A stretch of DNA of 5,299 nucleotides from Desulfobacterales bacterium (lineage in GTDB: Bacteria; Desulfobacterota; Desulfobacteria; Desulfobacterales; RPRI01), in contig JAGVOC010000137.1 of assembly GCA_020052975.1 (NCBI GenBank), positions 1-5,299 on the forward strand, given 5' to 3'. Of the stretch, positions 1 to 5,299 are shown piece by piece. Numbering within the stretch: position 1 is the first letter of the stretch; every line of letters begins with the position of its first letter. The position numbers were made by a program, and so were the translations under genes. The notes beneath the pieces are model-generated. The model saw only the letters and a program-made list of their open reading frames with translations, ran no database searches and had not been told where the DNA came from.

Positions 1-63
1 CAACGAGCAAAAAGGTTCGTTCTTAAGTTATACGAAAAAAGAAAACCATTTTTTTCGTTAATG
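1..63 (-). other. attC recombination site of cassette 2 (right end cut by the window)
   Basis: Read in the gene direction (minus strand), the site opens with CATTAAC (57-63, R'' box), seven bases after the stop codon of the upstream gene, and ends with GTTG at 4-1, the start of an R' box whose last three bases fall outside the window. The plus strand, which is the recombinogenic bottom strand, folds as follows: AACGA 2-6 with TCGTT 55-59, AAAAA 9-13 with the T run 49-54, GGTT 14-17 with AACC 44-47, and TTCTT 20-24 with AAGAA 39-43. Unpaired bases lie at 7-8, 18-19 and 48, and the apical loop is about 25-38. Paired arms, core boxes, bulged bases and position directly behind a gene are the attC hallmarks. 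The stem is unusually AT-rich. Confidence 0.72.
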
Positions 64-70
64 GATAATT

Positions 71-835
71 TTACCCTTGACATCGGGAGGCCTTATAAGG
101 GTTATGATTCTCCTTCGTAACCTTATCAATTAATTCAGATCTCAATCTTTTTATGATTTCTTTAGCCACTGGCTTCTTCTTGAAAGAAACAATGTCCTTA
201 AATGTAAATGGCTTTGTTTCCAATGATACCGCCAGATTTTGTAACTCCATTATGATTTTATAATATTTCTCAGATTTCTCGTTAAGGCTATGGACCTCTG
301 ACATATATCCTTCGTAAATTCTTTCTGCAGAAGCAGTTGGGACATCCTCTCTGTAAAATGCTTGAATTGCATACTTTAGGTCATTTTCAAAAAAATCATA
401 TGTAGTGCCAACAAAGGCAAACAATAGTTGGGTTGCCTCCCAAAAGGCGTCATCGTCAACAAGGGATTTTATTTTGTAGAAGGGTGAAATTGAAAAGCTT
501 TTTGGATCATACATTATGAACTCTCTGGCTAATGATTCTTTTCGCATCGGAATATTTGCTGAGCTTGATCCTTTAAATTCTCTGAGCATTCTGAGGCTTA
601 ATGACCAATTTTCTTTAAAAACTCCCAAGGCATGGTCAACATTGGATGAAATAAGATCAACCCCCTGTTCTAAATAACGTTTAATTATCTGTTCATGTTC
701 TCGTTTTTGAAAATATGTTAAAAGGCCCAACCTGTAACCAAGCCATATAGAGATTAAAACCGGAAGCAATGACAGAAAGATTGGTTCCTTTTCAGATAGA
801 ATTTCAATAATTGAATTTGTCAAAGAATTATACAT
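71..835 (-). CDS. Cassette 2 gene: unknown protein with one N-terminal membrane anchor
   Basis: I do not recognise this 254-residue protein. Residues about 19-41 form one hydrophobic segment (IFLSLLPVLISIW onward), followed at once by basic residues (QKREHEQIIKR), which predicts an anchored protein with its body in the cytoplasm. The body is mostly helical and charged. Residues 128-165 contain an aromatic-rich stretch (DDDAFWEATQLLFAF), and 175-240 alternate charged and hydrophobic residues with a basic end (FKKKPVAKEIIKRLRSEL). No catalytic motif, signal peptidase site or metal ligand pattern is evident. The ATG at 833-835 has no convincing Shine-Dalgarno sequence, which is common in cassette genes. 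Translation may depend on read-through from cassette 1, and no promoter is obvious in the short gap before it. The stop codon lies seven bases before the attC. A membrane-associated accessory or defence-type role is possible but cannot be shown from sequence. Confidence 0.85.
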   Translation of the reverse strand: MYNSLTNSIIEILSEKEPIFLSLLPVLISIWLGYRLGLLTYFQKREHEQIIKRYLEQGVDLISSNVDHALGVFKENWSLSLRMLREFKGSSSANIPMRKESLAREFIMYDPKSFSISPFYKIKSLVDDDAFWEATQLLFAFVGTTYDFFENDLKYAIQAFYREDVPTASAERIYEGYMSEVHSLNEKSEKYYKIIMELQNLAVSLETKPFTFKDIVSFKKKPVAKEIIKRLRSELIDKVTKENHNPYKASRCQG

Positions 836-875
836 AGTTCAAATTAAAGTAGCTCTTTCCAAAGTCTCTTCTGAA

Positions 876-935
876 TCATAACAATGAACTCACCTTCCGC
901 CGATTCTGGCGGTAAGGTGCAGTGATTGGTTAGCA
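876..935 (-). other. attC recombination site (59-base element) of cassette 1
   Basis: This 60-base site lies between the stop of the 948-1787 gene and the start of the next gene. In gene orientation it starts with TGCTAAC (R'', 929-935) and ends with GTTATGA (R', 876-882). The plus (bottom) strand folds into a long hairpin: TAAC 879-882 with GTTA 929-932, AAT 883-885 with ATT 925-927, ACT 888-890 with AGT 921-923, CACCTT 891-896 with AAGGTG 914-919, and CCGCC 897-901 with GGCGG 908-912, around the loop GATTCT. Single extrahelical bases at T913 and G928 lie on one strand only, which is how IntI selects the bottom strand. The GTTAT form of R' also occurs in Vibrio cholerae repeats. The R'' box fits the RYYYAAC consensus only loosely. 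Confidence 0.87.
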
Positions 936-947
936 AATACAAGTTAT

Positions 948-1787
948 TTATTTAACACCAGTGACATGCAATTTGTGAACTGTATCTTCACCGAATGGGT
1001 TTGATTCCATCTCAACTAAGCAATATAAATCTACCTCATTTTTCAGCATGGAATAGATATAGTTGACATTATCCTGAGAACCAAAAATTGCAAACCTGTA
1101 TTCTCCAATAGGAACTTGCTGATTATCAATGGAAACGGACAATTTCCCAATGTTTTTATATTTATTGAAATCGAAAATTTCACACTTTAATAGGATTGTT
1201 TCTTTTTCAATCCTTGTCGGGATGTCGAAGATGTTTTTATCGTCTTTTCCAAGATATATGTCCGGGGTTGCTTCGTCGCATTTCCCGGCAGATATTTGAT
1301 TAATTTTCTTCGGCTCAATTAAATGTGCTAAGTCCTGATAGCTTGGCAATGCCAACTTGCCTATTTGGATTACTTGATCATGAAAGTGAAAATGTTTATC
1401 CCCTGTGTGGACATAAGCATCACCATCATTTTGAAATTCATAAGTTGGTTTTTCACCTTTTTGGATGGCACCACATACTACTTTAAGAAAATCAAATGTG
1501 TTTTTAGTGAACTCCCAAATATTATCAGGGCCTATTGTGCCGATATATGGCAATACAAACTGAAATCCGCTTACTATTATTTCAAATTTTGTTAGTAAAG
1601 ACCCTCGTGAAATTGAACTTGCTCTAAGCTGAAATATTTCTCTGTCTTTGGCTGTGAGTTTTTTTGAGTTGGTTCCTACTAAATATGTTTTATCAATAAC
1701 GCTATGAAAAGTATTGAGTGCATTTATTGCAATATGAAGCGGGATACCATCATCGAGGATAGGCCCACATATTTTATATTCAAGCAT
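948..1787 (-). CDS. Cassette 1 gene: unknown 279-residue protein with an HFHFH motif
   Basis: I cannot name this 279-residue protein. It appears soluble, with no signal peptide. Residues 1-30 (MLEYKICGPILDDGIPLHIA) look like a strand followed by a helix. Residues 52-75 contain an SRGSLLTKFEI stretch leading into a moderately hydrophobic segment (about 68-86) that is too polar for a sure membrane span. Residues 121-136 hold a glycine/aspartate turn and then HFHFHDQ, an alternating histidine pattern that fits an exposed beta strand and could bind metal. The C-terminal 80 residues look beta-rich. The general build resembles uncharacterised proteins found in cassettes and accessory islands, but I do not assign a family. 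The ATG at 1785-1787 is the first possible start, because an in-frame stop lies four codons upstream; the Shine-Dalgarno signal is weak. It is first in the array, about 175 bases below the Pc start, so it should be the best-expressed cassette gene. Confidence 0.88.
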   Translation of the reverse strand: MLEYKICGPILDDGIPLHIAINALNTFHSVIDKTYLVGTNSKKLTAKDREIFQLRASSISRGSLLTKFEIIVSGFQFVLPYIGTIGPDNIWEFTKNTFDFLKVVCGAIQKGEKPTYEFQNDGDAYVHTGDKHFHFHDQVIQIGKLALPSYQDLAHLIEPKKINQISAGKCDEATPDIYLGKDDKNIFDIPTRIEKETILLKCEIFDFNKYKNIGKLSVSIDNQQVPIGEYRFAIFGSQDNVNYIYSMLKNEVDLYCLVEMESNPFGEDTVHKLHVTGVK

Positions 1788-1798
1788 TGGCTTTGCCT

Positions 1799-1927
1799 AT
1801 GAAAAAAGAATTGCTGGATGCATTTAAGATGATTCTTGCGTTCCCATTTATTGTCATCGGGTATTTATTGTATAAGATTTTCATCTTTCTCAAAACTGGC
1901 TGGGTAATTTCAAGAGATTTTGATTGA
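1799..1927 (+). CDS. Possible 42-residue single-span membrane peptide, counter-oriented in cassette 1
   Basis: A short plus-strand frame opens at ATG 1799 and stops at TGA 1925-1927, filling the gap between the start of the unknown gene (1787) and the attI crossover (1934). The product starts MKKELLDAFKMILAFPF. Residues about 11-31 are continuous hydrophobic sequence with one proline and one glycine, flanked by lysines, and the tail is KTGWVISRDFD. That build is typical of real small membrane proteins. Against it, there is no Shine-Dalgarno sequence, TTG codons at 1787 and 1793 are alternative starts, and its start lies only 11 bases from the opposing gene's start, so its promoter would have to lie inside that gene. 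It is read opposite to the array and so could not use Pc. I recognise no family; it may be a chance frame. Confidence 0.45.
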   Translation: MKKELLDAFKMILAFPFIVIGYLLYKIFIFLKTGWVISRDFD

Positions 1928-1928
1928 T

Positions 1929-1960
1929 GGCTAACAATTATTGAACTGCAAGTTATATTT
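1929..1960 (-). other. attI: attI recombination site (core and adjacent arm)
   Basis: The minus strand reads TTGCAGTTCAATAATTGTTAGCC, where GTTAGCC (1929-1935) matches the GTTRRRY crossover core in four of its seven fixed or purine/pyrimidine positions plus the final pyrimidine. The cassette boundary would fall between 1935 and 1934. Unlike the two attC sites, no matching R'' partner or long inverted repeat is found further right, as expected for attI, which is used double-stranded. Its place between the integrase start and the first cassette, just below Pc, supports the call. The right limit is uncertain: attI sites usually extend over accessory IntI-binding repeats, and candidates are two GTTGCAA copies (2056-2062 and 2105-2111) and GTTATATT at 1952 and 2119. 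Confidence 0.7.
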
Positions 1961-1967
1961 TGTAAAA

Positions 1968-1996
1968 ATTCTAAACCTATAAATATTTATTGTCAA
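1968..1996 (-). promoter_or_regulatory. Pc cassette promoter
   Basis: On the minus strand, TTGACA (1991-1996) is followed after exactly 17 bases by TAGAAT (1968-1973). This is a perfect -35 hexamer, an optimal spacer and a -10 one base from consensus. Transcription would start near 1961 and run through attI into the first cassette. Promoters called Pc occupy this place in integrons, between the intI start and attI, and drive the promoterless cassette genes. The near-consensus match predicts a strong promoter in cells using a sigma-70-type factor. Confidence 0.83.
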
Positions 1997-2105
1997 TCAG
2001 AATCTGGCGGAATCTTACAATTTCAACAAATTATATTTACTTGTATTTTCGATTAGTTGCAATCTTAATAGTGTCATAAACATTCATTGGGCCTCGAATA
2101 ATTTG

Positions 2106-2135
2106 TTGCAAAATTAATGTTATATTGTATATAAC
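2106..2135 (+). promoter_or_regulatory. Integrase promoter
   Basis: TTGCAA (2106-2111) is a reasonable -35 element. TATATA (2128-2133, 16-base spacer) or TATAAC (2130-2135, 18-base spacer) can serve as -10. Transcription would begin around 2141, leaving a short leader before the Shine-Dalgarno sequence at 2157-2162. The -10 region lies inside a perfect palindrome (see 2119-2135), so the promoter is probably repressible. Confidence 0.6.
2119..2135. promoter_or_regulatory. Palindromic operator candidate over the integrase -10
   Basis: GTTATAT-TGT-ATATAAC is a perfect seven-base inverted repeat with a three-base centre, placed between the -35 and -10 of the intI promoter. A dimeric repressor bound here would block RNA polymerase. 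Many integron integrases are under LexA (SOS) control, but the sequence does not match the CTGT-N8-ACAG box of gammaproteobacteria. It could be another lineage's LexA box, a different regulator's site, or a pair of IntI-binding boxes, since each half resembles GTTRRRY/RYYYAAC. Confidence 0.5.
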
Positions 2136-2167
2136 TAAATCATTAGAATCATTATTAGGGGGACAAT

Positions 2168-3457
2168 ATGAACAAGGAGATGGATGTCTTTAGGGATTTT
2201 CAAACGTTTCTTTCGGAATCGGGGACTGTTCCCGAAAATAAGACCAAATTCTATATTCACTGGGTACAAAGGTTTTTGAAATTCTGCAATTATGAACTTG
2301 ACAATATCAACACGGAACGCGTGTCCCAATATCTGGATTCACTGGATGCTGATGAAAAGATTGCGGACTGGCAGGTGAAACAGGCTGCCGATGCAGTCAT
2401 CCTCTATGTTGAACAATACCTTAAGAAGCCGCTACAACAGATCACCTCTTTAGCGGAAAATTCCAGGTCAAATTCTACAGCTCAAAAGGTAACCCTTTCA
2501 TGGGAACACATACTGGAGGAGGCAAAAAACCTTATCCGTCTCCGACACTACTCAATAAGCACAGAAAAGACATATCTTGGGTGGATAGTACGTTTTAAAA
2601 CATACATGAAGGATTGTGAGCCACATCTACTTGAAGCAAATGATGTGAAAAACTATCTCACCCATCTTGCTCTTCATGGACGTGTTTCCGCATCAACCCA
2701 AAATCAGGCATTCAATGCCCTTTTGTTCCTGTACCGCCATATTTTACACAAAGATATGAATGATCTTACATCTGTGGCAAGGGCAAAACGTAAGGTAACC
2801 CTGCCTGCTGTTTTGAGTAGAGACGAAGTGAAAAGGCTTCTGTCTTTCCTCAACGGGCAGTATCTCCTTATGGCACAACTCATGTATGGATGCGGGCTTC
2901 GCCTTATGGAGTGTCTCCGCTTAAGAATAAAAGATGTTGATTTTGAAAACGATCTCCTCGTGGTTCGTTCCGGCAAGGGGGAAAAAGACAGGGCATTGAC
3001 AATACCGGAAAAGATAAAAGAAGAACTAGCTAAATATGTGGCATCTGTCAAGGAGATATATGAACAGGATGTGAAGATTGGATACGGCGAGGTATCTCTC
3101 CCCGGTGCTTTGGAAAAGAAATACCCTGGTGCTGCACGGGAATGGGCATGGCAGTGGATGTTTCCTGCCCAGAAATTGTCCGTTGACCCACGAACCGGAA
3201 ATGTAAGACGGTGGCATATCCATCCTGCTGCCATTCAGCGTGCACTAAAAGGAGCTGTTGTGAAAGCGGGGCTACCGAAAAAGGCAAGCTGCCACACATT
3301 GCGTCACAGCTTTGCTACCCATCTCCTTGAAGCTGGACAAAATATCAGGACGATTCAGGAGCTTTTAGGGCACAAGCATGTAAATACAACCATGATTTAC
3401 ACACATGTTATACGGAAGAAACCATCTGAGGTAAGGAGTCCCCTGGACGCTTTGTAA
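2168..3457 (+). CDS. intI: Integron integrase (tyrosine recombinase), long form
   Basis: This 429-residue site-specific recombinase would insert and excise cassettes by recombining attI and attC sites. The catalytic set is complete: R245 (in GCGLRLMEC), K270 (GKGEKDRAL), H376 and R379 (CHTLRHSF), H402 (LLGHKH) and nucleophile Y411 (MIYTH). Each of the five R/H/Y residues is exactly 99 positions beyond its counterpart in class 1 IntI1 (R146, H277, R280, H303, Y312). The IntI-specific insertion that recognises extrahelical attC bases is present at about 308-340 (SLPGALEKKYP, then WAWQWMF). The end, EVRSPLDAL, is the usual IntI ending. A core-binding domain spans about 112-200. Residues 1-90 form an extra helical, SAM-like domain that the 337-residue IntI1 lacks. 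ATG 2168 is supported by AGGGGG at 2157-2162. No frameshift or lost residue is seen, so the enzyme should be active. Confidence 0.97.
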   Translation: MNKEMDVFRDFQTFLSESGTVPENKTKFYIHWVQRFLKFCNYELDNINTERVSQYLDSLDADEKIADWQVKQAADAVILYVEQYLKKPLQQITSLAENSRSNSTAQKVTLSWEHILEEAKNLIRLRHYSISTEKTYLGWIVRFKTYMKDCEPHLLEANDVKNYLTHLALHGRVSASTQNQAFNALLFLYRHILHKDMNDLTSVARAKRKVTLPAVLSRDEVKRLLSFLNGQYLLMAQLMYGCGLRLMECLRLRIKDVDFENDLLVVRSGKGEKDRALTIPEKIKEELAKYVASVKEIYEQDVKIGYGEVSLPGALEKKYPGAAREWAWQWMFPAQKLSVDPRTGNVRRWHIHPAAIQRALKGAVVKAGLPKKASCHTLRHSFATHLLEAGQNIRTIQELLGHKHVNTTMIYTHVIRKKPSEVRSPLDAL

Positions 3458-3525
3458 GACTGTGTAAGTAATTAATAGGAGGAGAGCTTTATTGAAAAAA
3501 GCACCCCTTTTCGCTTTAGCATGAA

Positions 3526-3549
3526 ATTTTTCAGGAGGAGCGAATTAGT
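3526..3549 (+). repeat. 24-base direct repeat, copy 1
   Basis: This copy is identical over 24 bases to 3732-3755, and the spacing between the two starts is 206 bases. It contains CAGGAGGAGCGAATTAGT after a run of T. It lies in non-coding DNA about 70 bases past the integrase stop, so it appears to duplicate the end of the aldolase gene together with its flank. Confidence 0.9.
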
Positions 3550-3617
3550 TCACACTGAAAAATTCCCTTTTCCGCTCTCTGGTGCAGGTTTTTTGACCCA
3601 TCTATGACTCGCTCCAG

Positions 3618-3662
3618 GCATTTTCAGGAACTCACCCTTCGGGCTCAAACAGCTGAAAATGC
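3618..3662. repeat. Perfect 10-base inverted repeat with a small inner hairpin
   Basis: GCATTTTCAG (3618-3627) is the exact complement of CTGAAAATGC (3653-3662). The 25-base interior contains CCC-TTC-GGG, which can form a three-pair inner hairpin. This is the centre of the repeat mosaic and its most stable-looking fold. It could act as a bidirectional transcript end, but no adjoining T run is present on either strand. Confidence 0.7.
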
Positions 3663-3731
3663 TTATCTTCCGCTTCGTCAAGACGGGTACCCCAAAAATC
3701 CTGCTCATGATCGCTCCAAAGGAAATTTTTC

Positions 3732-3755
3732 ATTTTTCAGGAGGAGCGAATTAGT
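3732..3755 (+). repeat. 24-base direct repeat, copy 2, overlapping the fba stop codon
   Basis: This copy is identical to 3526-3549. Its last five bases (3751-3755, TTAGT) are the stop codon and part of the last sense codon of the aldolase gene on the minus strand. Overlap with a gene end suggests either duplication of the aldolase 3' flank or use of that flank as an integration target. Confidence 0.9.
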
Positions 3756-4746
3756 ACCGCTCTGCGCTGCCCAGCACATTCTTGTTCTTTTCAATGATCA
3801 TCTTCATGAGCTCATCGCGGGCAGGCCCTAAGTATTTGCGCGGGTCGAATTCAGCCGGTTTTTCATTGAATATTTTACGGATCATGGCTGTAACAACCAA
3901 ACGCCCGTCGGAATCTATGTTGATCTTGCAGACAGCAGATCTTGCCGCCTTTCTCAACTGATCCTCGGAAATACCAACAGTATCTGCCAGTGCTCCACCA
4001 TTACTATTAATAAGGTCAACGTATTTGGATAGGACGGAACTGGCTCCATGTAAAACAATGGCGAAACCAGGAATTCGTTTTTCGATTTCCTCAAGGATGT
4101 CAAAGCGCAGAGGCGGCGGGGTCAAAACTCCTTCTTTGCTGAGGGTGCACTGCTCCGGCTTGAATTTATAAGCGCCATGAGAGGTCCCTATTGAAATTGC
4201 AAGAGAGTCAACGCCGGTCTTCTTTACAAAATCTTCAACCTCTTCGGGCTGAGTATAAGTAGACCTGTCTCCAACTACGTCGTCTTCGATTCCGGCCAGT
4301 ATGCCGAGCTCACCCTCAACAGTAACATCGAACCTGTGGGCATATTCGACGACCTTCCTGGTTAGTTCAACATTTTCATTATAAGAAAGGTGGGAGCCGT
4401 CGATCATTACCGAAGAGAATCCGCTTTCAATACAGGAAACACAGAGCTCGTAACTGTCACCGTGGTCAAGGTGAAGAGCTATGGGAATACTGTAGCCAAG
4501 CTCCCGTGCCATTTCCACAGCACCTTTTCCCATGTTGCGGAGAAGGGTGGCGTCAGCGTAGTTACGGGCGCCCTTAGAGACCTGGAGGATTACCGGAGAC
4601 CCTGATTGACCGCACCCGTTGATAATAGCCTGAATCTGCTCCATATTGTTAAAGTTATAAGCAGGGACGGCATATCCGCCATCCATGGCTTTTTTAAACA
4701 TTTCACGTGTGTTGACAAAGCCTAGTTCTTTATAGCTTATAGCCAT
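3751..4746 (-). CDS. fba: Class II fructose-bisphosphate aldolase
   Basis: The 331-residue enzyme interconverts fructose 1,6-bisphosphate with dihydroxyacetone phosphate and glyceraldehyde 3-phosphate in cytoplasmic glycolysis and gluconeogenesis, using a bound divalent metal, normally zinc. The N-terminal AVPAYNFNN (26-34) is the family strand. IALHLDHGD (89-97) is the class II signature, carrying the proposed acid/base D95 and metal ligand H96. EGELG (144-148) is the second signature, with a supporting acidic residue. GTSHGAYK (187-194) supplies H190 and VLHGAS (231-236) supplies H233 as further metal ligands. KINIDSD (274-280) contacts substrate phosphate. Length is at the long end for this type, with the usual FDPRKYLGPARD tail. 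ATG 4744-4746 follows AGGAGG (4753-4758) after six bases. It converges on intI and diverges from the sensor gene. Related tagatose-bisphosphate aldolases share the motifs, but the context and tail favour fructose bisphosphate. Confidence 0.93.
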   Translation of the reverse strand: MAISYKELGFVNTREMFKKAMDGGYAVPAYNFNNMEQIQAIINGCGQSGSPVILQVSKGARNYADATLLRNMGKGAVEMARELGYSIPIALHLDHGDSYELCVSCIESGFSSVMIDGSHLSYNENVELTRKVVEYAHRFDVTVEGELGILAGIEDDVVGDRSTYTQPEEVEDFVKKTGVDSLAISIGTSHGAYKFKPEQCTLSKEGVLTPPPLRFDILEEIEKRIPGFAIVLHGASSVLSKYVDLINSNGGALADTVGISEDQLRKAARSAVCKINIDSDGRLVVTAMIRKIFNEKPAEFDPRKYLGPARDELMKMIIEKNKNVLGSAERY

Positions 4747-4770
4747 GACAGTCCTCCTCTCTTTTTTATG

Positions 4771-4834
4771 TCAGGTAGATAGACTGAAGGCGGAAGACTG
4801 TTAGGACACTTCGGTCTTCAGCCTGAATACCTGA
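4771..4834 (-). promoter_or_regulatory. Stem-loop in the fba 5' leader
   Basis: Two nested complementary pairs lie between the likely fba promoter and its Shine-Dalgarno sequence: TCAGGTA 4771-4777 with TACCTGA 4828-4834 (perfect), and GGCGGAAGAC 4789-4798 with GTCTTCAGCC 4814-4823 (one mismatch). Together they form a long interrupted hairpin with a 15-base loop. In the transcript the stem ends about 12 bases before the ribosome binding site and is followed by A-rich rather than U-rich sequence, so it is not an intrinsic terminator. It may stabilise the messenger or modulate translation; I recognise no known riboswitch. Confidence 0.5.
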
Positions 4835-4897
4835 GCGGTCACGTTTTATCTATGTATCTTTTTCCATTCTGGATTCTGTCTCCTGAATAGTTACTAA

Positions 4898-4925
4898 TAT
4901 ATAACTAAACATACAAACATATCAA
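4898..4925 (-). promoter_or_regulatory. Likely fba promoter
   Basis: On the minus strand, TTGATA (4920-4925) and TATATA (4898-4903) are separated by 16 bases. The start would lie near 4891, giving a leader of about 145 bases. A second, weaker option uses the perfect TTGACA at 4943-4948, but its -10 at the right distance is poor. AGTTA 4889-4893 and TAACT 4902-4906 form a short inverted repeat over the -10. Confidence 0.45.
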
Positions 4926-4972
4926 GGAATTTCACCTGTTTCTGTCAAAAAATTTCCGCTGCCAAAACTTCC

Positions 4973-5000
4973 TTGACAAAAATGCAATCTATAAGATAAA
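4973..5000 (+). promoter_or_regulatory. Possible promoter of the sensor gene
   Basis: TTGACA (4973-4978) is a perfect -35 hexamer. GATAAA (4995-5000, 16-base spacer) is the best-placed but imperfect -10; the better-looking TATAAG at 4990 is too close. The start would fall near 5007, about 60 bases before the ATG at 5067. Apart from this, the fba promoter and the leader hairpin, I see nothing in the 320-base gap from 4747 to 5066. Confidence 0.4.
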
Positions 5001-5066
5001 ACAATATAAAGGTTTCATTAAATAATTATTCCGAGTTTTTTCAATAGGTTTATTAAGGTCTATGGG

Positions 5067-5299
5067 ATGAAACTGACCATAAAGCGAAAGTTGCTCTTTA
5101 GTTATATGGCTATGGTTCTATTGACTGTTCTGGCCAGCACTTATGCTGTAATCAGTTTGCAGAACCTGAATAAGCTGGCATACACCATAATCAGTCAGGA
5201 TTTTATGGCACTTGAAACCAGCAAGACGATGATGGATGCCCTGCTTGCCCAGGAGAGCGCCGAAAAAAAATATCTGATCCTTAAAGACCCATCCCTTGC
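5067..5299 (+). CDS. Membrane sensor protein, N-terminal part (histidine kinase or chemoreceptor)
   Basis: Seventy-seven codons are visible before the window ends. The protein starts MKLTIKRKLLFSYM, with basic residues before a membrane span at about 9-30, a typical inside-to-outside anchor. It continues into a charged helical region with ALLAQESAEKKYLILKDP (58-75). This helix pattern, with a QE..EKKYLIL stretch, is typical of the periplasmic four-helix-bundle sensing domains that open many sensor histidine kinases and methyl-accepting chemotaxis proteins. Which of the two cannot be told, because the signalling part is outside the window. ATG 5067 is chosen over ATG 5062, which meets a stop two codons later; a weak AAGG at 5055-5058 precedes it. 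It is divergent from fba, with no evident functional link. Confidence 0.78.
   Translation, partial: MKLTIKRKLLFSYMAMVLLTVLASTYAVISLQNLNKLAYTIISQDFMALETSKTMMDALLAQESAEKKYLILKDPSL

What the first reader, a model, noticed from the sequence alone, without database searches (positions are those of the whole stretch)
1..3457. Complete integron platform with unfamiliar cassettes
IntI, its promoter, attI, Pc and two attC-bounded cassettes are all seen in the correct order and polarity, yet neither cassette product is recognisable and no resistance gene is present. This is an environmental cassette array whose content is largely unexplored, and it probably continues left of the window.
Basis: partly seen in the sequence, partly recalled or inferred. 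Interest (0 to 1): 0.7.

Follow-up and report, generated by a model that had tools for sequence, protein, structure and literature searches.

The report
Subsurface integron with IS-interrupted second cassette
This is a genuine bacterial integron (a gene-capture platform), nearly identical to ones from uncultured deep-mine bacteria that hold a different first captured gene, and its second captured gene appears to have its recombination site split by an inserted mobile element; the platform is of a known kind.

Summary
The integron is real. The integrase (2168-3457) matches the integron-integrase model and IntI4. attC1 (876-935) is a good attC: bottom-strand hairpin z -4.8, and its R'' matches the start of its own cassette. 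The strongest evidence lies outside the window: two MAG contigs, deep-mine by their names, carry the same integrase and attI (0 mismatches in 3368 bases; 4 in 1535). Identity stops at the predicted attI cut (1932-1935), and each of the three has a different first cassette.

Its R'' is TCATAAC at 101-107, followed at 86-100 by a conserved element end that recurs in other genomes. There, two-ended copies are IS110-family elements of IS1111 type, inserted between R'' and L'' of attC sites. So 1-100 is most likely the end of an attC-targeting insertion sequence, cut off by the contig edge. Whether the array continues to the left cannot be seen.

Neither cassette product matches Pfam, NCBIfam or PADLOC above cut-off. 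ORF1 belongs to a large unnamed family (161 homologues; distant relatives in four phage records) with a predicted OB-like C-terminal part. Verdict: new member of a known kind; interest moderate.

The parts
2168..3457 (+). intI: integron integrase, 429 aa, with an extra N-terminal SAM-like domain of about 110 aa
   Evidence: TIGR02249 451 bits over residues 115-429; PDB 2A3V IntI4 E 1.1e-80; N-terminal residues 25-90 match PF13495 at 1.7e-10
1929..1935 (-). attI / first-cassette junction, GTTAGCC read on the - strand; predicted cut between 1935 (G) and 1934 (T)
   Evidence: From 1932 rightwards L001 has 0 mismatches (to 5299) and L002 has 4 (to 3466); the sequences differ to the left; the attI core with 0-1 mismatch occurs once in each of G001-G005 (at 3 mismatches the reversed control matches too)
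1968..1996 (-). Pc candidate, TTGACA-17-TAGAAT, pointing into the cassettes
   Evidence: 11 of 12 consensus matches; consensus scan only, not a functional test
882..1934 (-). Cassette 1 (1053 bp), from TTAGCC to the G of attC1
   Evidence: Bounded by the attI junction and attC1; its start against its own R'' TGCTAAC: 6 of 7 complementary (sequence)
948..1787 (-). ORF1, 279 aa, uncharacterised family; predicted OB-like C-terminal part (residues about 190-279)
876..935 (-). attC1 (60 bp): R'' TGCTAAC 935-929, R' GTTATGA 882-876, extended imperfect hairpin between
   Evidence: Folding z -3.9 top and -4.8 bottom, 0 of 300 shuffles each; scan
101..881 (-). Visible part of cassette 2, from TTATGA to attC2's R''
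   Evidence: Its start is fully complementary (7 of 7 with the G of the core) to R'' TCATAAC at its end (sequence)
71..835 (-). ORF2, 254 aa, mostly helical, N-terminal hydrophobic segment; last residues (NPYKASRCQG) are read into the insertion sequence end
   Evidence: 25 homologues; tail NPYKASRCQG absent from all 25; model pLDDT 88.6, residues 245-254 below 50
101..107 (-). attC2 R'' core TCATAAC
   Evidence: Matches the cassette's own TTATGA; among 50 copies of the following element (this one included) the base before AAC is C or T in 44 and the first core base A or G in 42
86..100 (-). Right end of an IS110-family (IS1111-type) element: 3-bp extension CCT (98-100) and 12-bp subterminal repeat TATAAGGCCTCC (86-97)
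   Evidence: nhmmer E 1.4e-13 over 103-38 with a model of 49 other copies; both ends and the attC flanks seen in relatives
1..85 (-). Probable non-coding region of the same element, truncated by the window edge
   Evidence: Continuous with the end; window 38-104 is 78% identical to L005 over 72 columns; positions 1-64 alone align best to L005, 2 of 500 shuffles, best of 50 tests; a model without the end motif does not recognise it

Best explanation
A chromosomal (sedentary) integron of an uncultured bacterium related to the deep-mine MAG titled Deltaproteobacteria SURF_34. Shown from sequence: an integron integrase gene, an attI site at which three near-identical platforms carry three different first cassettes, and one intact first cassette closed by a canonical attC. 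Inferred from what is known of integrons: IntI cuts the folded bottom strand of a cassette's attC between G and TT and joins it to attI, and Pc then transcribes the newest cassette first. Shown: cassette 2 ends in an R'' core directly followed by the end of an element that in other genomes is an IS110-family, IS1111-type insertion sequence lying between R'' and L'' of attC sites. Inferred: that element splits attC2, so cassette 2 can no longer be excised by its own attC while the insertion is there, and the contig breaks inside the element because it is repetitive.
For: Integrase. attI junction with different cassettes: 0 mismatches to L001 over 1932-5299 and 4 to L002 over 1932-3466, unrelated sequence to the left; L002's first cassette carries a DUF4160/DUF2442 pair. 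attC1. Cassette starts against their own R'': 6 of 7 and 7 of 7 complementary. Insertion element: motif in 33 of 200 relatives of G002, 9 of 198 relatives of G001 and 1 of 274 genomes of another class, reversed-pattern control 0 in all three. Five loci show both ends: four have an exact YAAC core on the left (the fifth reads TATC), and in four the right flank looks like the rest of an attC. IS110 transposase genes or remnants lie beside 5 of 51 copies, on the opposite strand; both long ones have PF01548 and PF02371 over cut-off.
Against: No recombination was observed. Only one intact attC is in the window, and by the scan alone 3 of 60 shuffled windows reach -14 somewhere. L001 holds only 95 bases beyond the junction and is a MAG contig end, so a chimaera there is not excluded. 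The far end of the element and the rest of attC2 lie outside the window, so the insertion is inferred from 15 end bases, the motif around them and the R'' flank; positions 1-64 on their own are recognised only weakly. Of 51 copies, 38 have 1000 bases or more held downstream, and only 5 of these show a transposase or remnant. PF02371 was found in 0 of 3 genomes G001, G002, G005. Joined flanks fold with z of only -0.6 to -2.4.
Confidence: 0.85

Rival explanations
1. One reading: positions 1-63 are themselves the attC of cassette 2 and the array simply continues to the left.
For: An imperfect inverted repeat with CATTAAC and GTTG at its ends; only 5 and 13 of 300 shuffles fold as well. In L051 a remnant of the same element of about 40-45 bases is followed by what by eye looks like the rest of an attC, so a short remnant followed by an attC half is possible here too.
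Against: The R'' that matches the cassette's start is at 101-107, not near 57-63; no hit in the structural scan; the sequence aligns along its length to L005, where a part resembling the element's non-coding region follows.
Confidence: 0.12
2. The conserved motif is not an insertion sequence end but a lineage-specific kind of attC whose spacer is conserved.
For: Copies follow R''-like cores directly after cassette-type genes such as HicAB and restriction-modification pairs and some stand in the same orientation along one array; most copies have no transposase seen nearby.
Against: Canonical attCs of another kind stand in the same array; two-ended elements of 0.5-1.6 kb carry inverted ends, with the rest of an attC beyond, and a DEDD transposase or remnants; by eye the motif has no complementary L' partner.
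Confidence: 0.05
3. ORF1 and ORF2 are ordinary fixed chromosomal genes and the attC is a transcription terminator hairpin.
For: attC1 is a stable hairpin between two genes; terminators can look like that.
Against: Near-identical platforms have other sequence there, with the break at the attI core; ORF1 was found in 2 of 198 relatives and ORF2 in 0 of 7 genomes (no positive control); R'' and cassette start match in both cassettes. 876-935 was not scanned for terminators.
Confidence: 0.02

Closest known systems
Sedentary chromosomal integrons (the Vibrio cholerae superintegron as type, recalled; integrons in Desulfobacterota mentioned in PMC9668308, passages read)
   Same: IntI of the TIGR02249 family, attI next to intI in opposite orientation to the cassettes, attC-bounded cassette of unknown function, no resistance gene seen
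   Different: Integrase carries an extra N-terminal SAM-like domain; no LexA-type box (CTGT-N8-ACAG, up to 2 mismatches) between 1935 and 2167; array size unknown
IS1111-attC group (Tetu and Holmes 2008, seen only as cited in PMC11187229 and PMC11616780; the 2008 paper is not held)
   Same: In relatives: IS110-family DEDD transposase, 12-bp subterminal inverted repeats, 3-bp and 7-bp extensions, non-coding region downstream of the transposase gene, insertion at one end of attC (family features as given in PMC11187229, passages read)
   Different: Found here in genomes drawn as relatives of G001 and G002 (records titled Deltaproteobacteria and Thermodesulfovibrionia); many copies without a transposase in view; in the window only the right end is visible

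Membership tests
Integron | Integron integrase (tyrosine recombinase with the IntI-specific insert) | tested here: met
   TIGR02249 451 bits, cut-off 265; aligned through to IntI4 2A3V
Integron | attI beside intI | tested here: met
   Break of identity at 1932-1935 in three platforms
Integron | Cassettes bounded by attC sites | tested here: met
   attC1 876-935; of attC2 only its R'' is in the window
Integron | Second attC at 1-63 | tested here: inconclusive
   z about -2.2, no scan hit, probably IS interior; edge of contig
Integron | Pc promoter | tested here: inconclusive
   11 of 12 consensus match, no expression data
Integron | Cassette content varies between close relatives | tested here: met
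   Three different sequences past attI on near-identical platforms; L001 shows only 95 bases of its first cassette
Integron | IntI-catalysed attI x attC recombination | not testable with these tools
   Needs an assay
IS1111 family (IS110 superfamily), attC-targeting | DEDD transposase with PF01548 and PF02371 | tested here: inconclusive
   Met in relatives L086 and L077; the window shows only the end; PF02371 in 0 of 3 genomes G001, G002, G005
IS1111 family (IS110 superfamily), attC-targeting | Subterminal inverted repeats of 11-13 bp with 7- and 3-bp extensions | tested here: inconclusive
   In L086 and L100 10 of 12 positions match between the ends, with 3 and 7 bp beyond; in the window only the right end, 86-100
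IS1111 family (IS110 superfamily), attC-targeting | Long non-coding region downstream of the transposase gene | tested here: inconclusive
   About 385 bases in L086 and 480 in L077/L100; window truncated after 85
IS1111 family (IS110 superfamily), attC-targeting | Insertion at a fixed place in attC | tested here: met
   Core on the left exact in 4 of 5 two-ended loci and decayed in 1, rest of an attC on the right in 4 of 5; exact RYYYAAC in 15 of 50 copies against 1.8 expected, P 2e-10 (copies are not independent); window copy has TCATAAC

The most novel reading that the evidence does not exclude
An attC-targeting group of IS1111-type elements (RNA-guided, if like their family), including many copies without a transposase in view, has spread through the chromosomal integrons of subsurface Deltaproteobacteria- and Thermodesulfovibrionia-type bacteria. 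By separating R'' from L'' it freezes cassettes in place, so that arrays carry a second, IS-driven layer that decides which cassettes can still move; the window shows a platform in which the first cassette is still exchanged while the second is frozen.
Probability: 0.4. Interest if true: 0.55.

Novelty: new member of a known kind. Interest (0 to 1): 0.4.

Why it matters
It shows, on platforms otherwise near-identical and apparently from one deep-mine setting, different first cassettes at attI, which is natural evidence of a working integron far from clinics. It also suggests that attC-targeting IS1111-type elements are common in these lineages. If they freeze cassettes, counts of movable cassettes from attC scans alone would be off, and some contig ends in such arrays would have a simple cause.

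Tried and rejected
Rfam scans of the window (up to E 1) and of nine motif loci (up to E 0.5) gave no match. So a described RNA family is not supported for the motif region; absence is not proof.

I first took the recurring motif at 77-107 for an attC variant with a conserved spacer, because R''-like cores precede it and some copies seemed by eye to pair CCGGTTG with CAACCGG. I dropped that after finding canonical attCs of another kind in the same array and two-ended elements with an IS110 transposase.

A covariance model of attC was not built; I used a rule-based scan with shuffles instead. At -14 that scan also missed the long attC-like sites of L100 (whose halves are apart) and one of L086, so its sensitivity is limited.

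LexA box: 25 matches in the window against 16.8 expected, 5 of 200 shuffles reach 25; none between attI and intI.

The attI 19-mer in viral contigs gave one contig, L018; not followed, chance is possible. The motif 16-mer gave none there.
Full report
What is there. The window holds an integrase gene at 2168-3457 (+), two genes on the - strand at 948-1787 and 71-835, a class II fructose-bisphosphate aldolase gene at 3751-4746 (-) and the start of a gene at 5067 (+) whose only Pfam match, 4HB_MCP_1, is just under cut-off. The integrase matches TIGR02249, integron integrase, at 451 bits against a cut-off of 265, and aligns from residue 118 to 428 with V. cholerae IntI4 (2A3V, E 1.1e-80), including the HTLRH, LGH and YTH motifs (their catalytic roles are recalled). 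Residues 1-110 are extra to that model; 25-90 match a second SAM-like domain (PF13495, 1.7e-10). Of the 120 integrase homologues listed (of 7998), 95 are 415 aa or longer.

The platform is real and its first cassette varies. A search of genome contigs returned 17 loci. Two of them, from MAGs titled SURF_34 and DeMMO2_3, carry the same platform; that both come from the Homestake deep mine is inferred from these names and from the titles and abstracts in the listing. From 1932 to 5299 the window has 0 mismatches to L001, and from 1932 to 3466 it has 4 to L002. To the left of 1932, where the TAACAATTATTGAACTGCAA core begins, window, L001 and L002 differ. L002's first cassette encodes a DUF4160/DUF2442 pair. 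L001 holds only 95 bases beyond the junction. The attI core with 0-1 mismatch occurs once in each of G001-G005 (with 3 mismatches allowed the reversed control matches too). A TTGACA-17-TAGAAT match points into the cassettes at 1996-1968 (5 sites found against 3.4 expected, so weak alone).

attC1. At 876-935 the - strand reads R'' TGCTAAC ... R' GTTATGA with a long imperfect hairpin. Folding z-scores are -3.9 (top) and -4.8 (bottom), 0 of 300 shuffles each. A rule-based scan found it as the only site on the cassette strand (-14.6; -15.1 on the other strand); 3 of 60 shuffled windows reach -14 somewhere, so the scan alone is not decisive, but position, polarity and core agree. The first bases of each cassette are complementary to its own R'': 6 of 7 for cassette 1 (TTAGCC, TGCTAAC) and 7 of 7 for cassette 2 (TTATGA, TCATAAC), as expected of cassettes that were once circles (sequence; the rule is recalled).

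attC2 and the insertion sequence. It overlaps and is followed by 27 bases (77-103) that fit the motif AACNCTTATAAGGCCTCCNGNTGTCAA. A form with 3 mismatches allowed occurs in 3 of 8 genomes tried; this form with 2 allowed occurs in 33 of 200 relatives of G002, 9 of 198 relatives of G001 and 1 of 274 genomes of another class, with 0 matches of the reversed pattern in each. I collected 51 distinct copies, the window's included. Of these, 50 have enough upstream sequence: the base before AAC is C or T in 44, the first core base is A or G in 42, and RYYYAAC is exact in 15 against 1.8 expected (related copies are not independent). Several copies follow cassette-type genes, such as HicAB in L047 and DNA methylase genes in L051 and L052, the former with a BglII-type endonuclease gene. 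In L086 the element contains a 355-aa IS110-family transposase on the opposite strand (PF01548 and PF02371 over cut-off). tblastn with it hit five places: L086, L077, one G005 place seen as L011, L041 and L053, L081 and L080, each beside the motif; most loci searched had been fetched by the motif, so this says which copies have a transposase, not that transposases occur only there. Of the 51 copies 38 have 1000 bases or more downstream in hand, so most show none.

In five loci both ends are seen. The left flank ends in an exact core in four (in L100 it reads TATC), and in four the right flank looks like the rest of an attC; L080's right flank is unclear. Joining the flanks of four of them gives attC-like sites; L011's folds end to end, but the z-scores are only -0.8 (L011), -0.6 (L081), -1.1 (L100) and -2.4 (L086), so the structures are shown by shape rather than by energy. 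The ends agree with the description of the IS1111 family in PMC11187229 (passages read): subterminal repeats of 11-13 bp (here TATAAGGCCTCC and ATTAAGGCCTCC, 10 of 12), 3 bp and 7 bp beyond them, and a non-coding region downstream of the transposase gene. That IS1111-type elements target attC is known (PMC11187229, PMC11616780, PMC11089894; passages read).

How sure is the window copy? A profile from 49 other copies finds 103-38 at E 1.4e-13, but a profile without the 27-base motif does not recognise the region. Positions 64-1 align best to L005, with 2 of 500 shuffles as good, the best of 50 tests. The end at 86-100 is therefore firm and the interior likely. PF02371 is in 0 of 3 genomes G001, G002 and G005, so no complete transposase was seen in the nearest genomes. 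ORF2 reads into the element: its last ten residues are absent from all 25 homologues.

Cassette products. ORF1 has 161 homologues at E <= 0.001 among 408 candidates; of the 120 listed none has a Pfam domain. It matches phrog_33593. Its model (pLDDT 88) has an OB-like C-terminal part. ORF2 has 25 homologues among 1131 candidates and a helical model with a hydrophobic N-terminus. ORF1 homologues are in 2 of 198 relatives of G001, ORF2 in 0 of 7 genomes (no positive control), in line with cassettes rather than core genes. I cannot say what either does; for ORF1 nucleic-acid binding through the OB-like part is a guess.

Literature. Searches for integron with gene cassette and deep subsurface (8 listed), integron integrase terms with Desulfobacterota (20 of 151 listed), IS1111 with attC and integron (16 listed), IS110 with attC sites (20 of 106 listed), integron with Nitrospirota and attC (1 listed) and IS1111-attC terms (5 of 15,327 listed) showed, by title and start of abstract, no paper on attC-targeting elements in these lineages. 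Only openly licensed papers are held, so this is weak. Integrons in Desulfobacterota are already reported (PMC9668308, passages).

Verdict. An ordinary kind of element, well supported, with one detail corrected and one moderately interesting addition, the attC-splitting insertion sequence.

Noticed in passing
window 3526-3755: Intergenic repeat with 24-base direct repeats at 3526-3549 and 3732-3755 and 40-base inverted arms; 3470-3760 has 47 matches in G001 (this locus included; 40 of 70 candidates scored), 6 in G002, 0 in three other genomes. L002 has 37 bases where the window has 265, so it differs between close relatives.
   Followed up: partly
window 2168-2500: Integrase N-terminal extension of about 110 aa with a second SAM-like domain; 95 of the 120 listed homologues are 415 aa or longer, so it is common among close relatives.
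   Followed up: partly
window 1799-1927: 42-aa open frame on the + strand (MKKELLDAFKMILAFPFIVIGYLLYKIF...), inside cassette 1 and opposite to ORF1, membrane-like by eye; no family match over cut-off.
   Followed up: no
L047 1089, L053 3841, L086 8159: Inside the element's non-coding region a conserved GCACCAAACACTTAT resembles the R''-element junction (YAACACTTATA); perhaps the guide RNA's target- or donor-matching part.
   Followed up: no
L050 1-4746 (G002): The start of a second, different integron-type integrase (PF13495) with an array ending in the same element motif, and a canonical attC at about 2461-2586.
   Followed up: partly
L040/L051: A remnant of the element of about 40-45 bases followed by what by eye looks like the rest of an attC, beside a DNA methylase and a BglII-type endonuclease gene.
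   Followed up: partly
L015/L019 (G004): A second attI core in the genome that also has L004, next to a partial integrase match.
   Followed up: no
L018 11-29: An exact 19-base attI match on a viral contig; may be chance.
   Followed up: no
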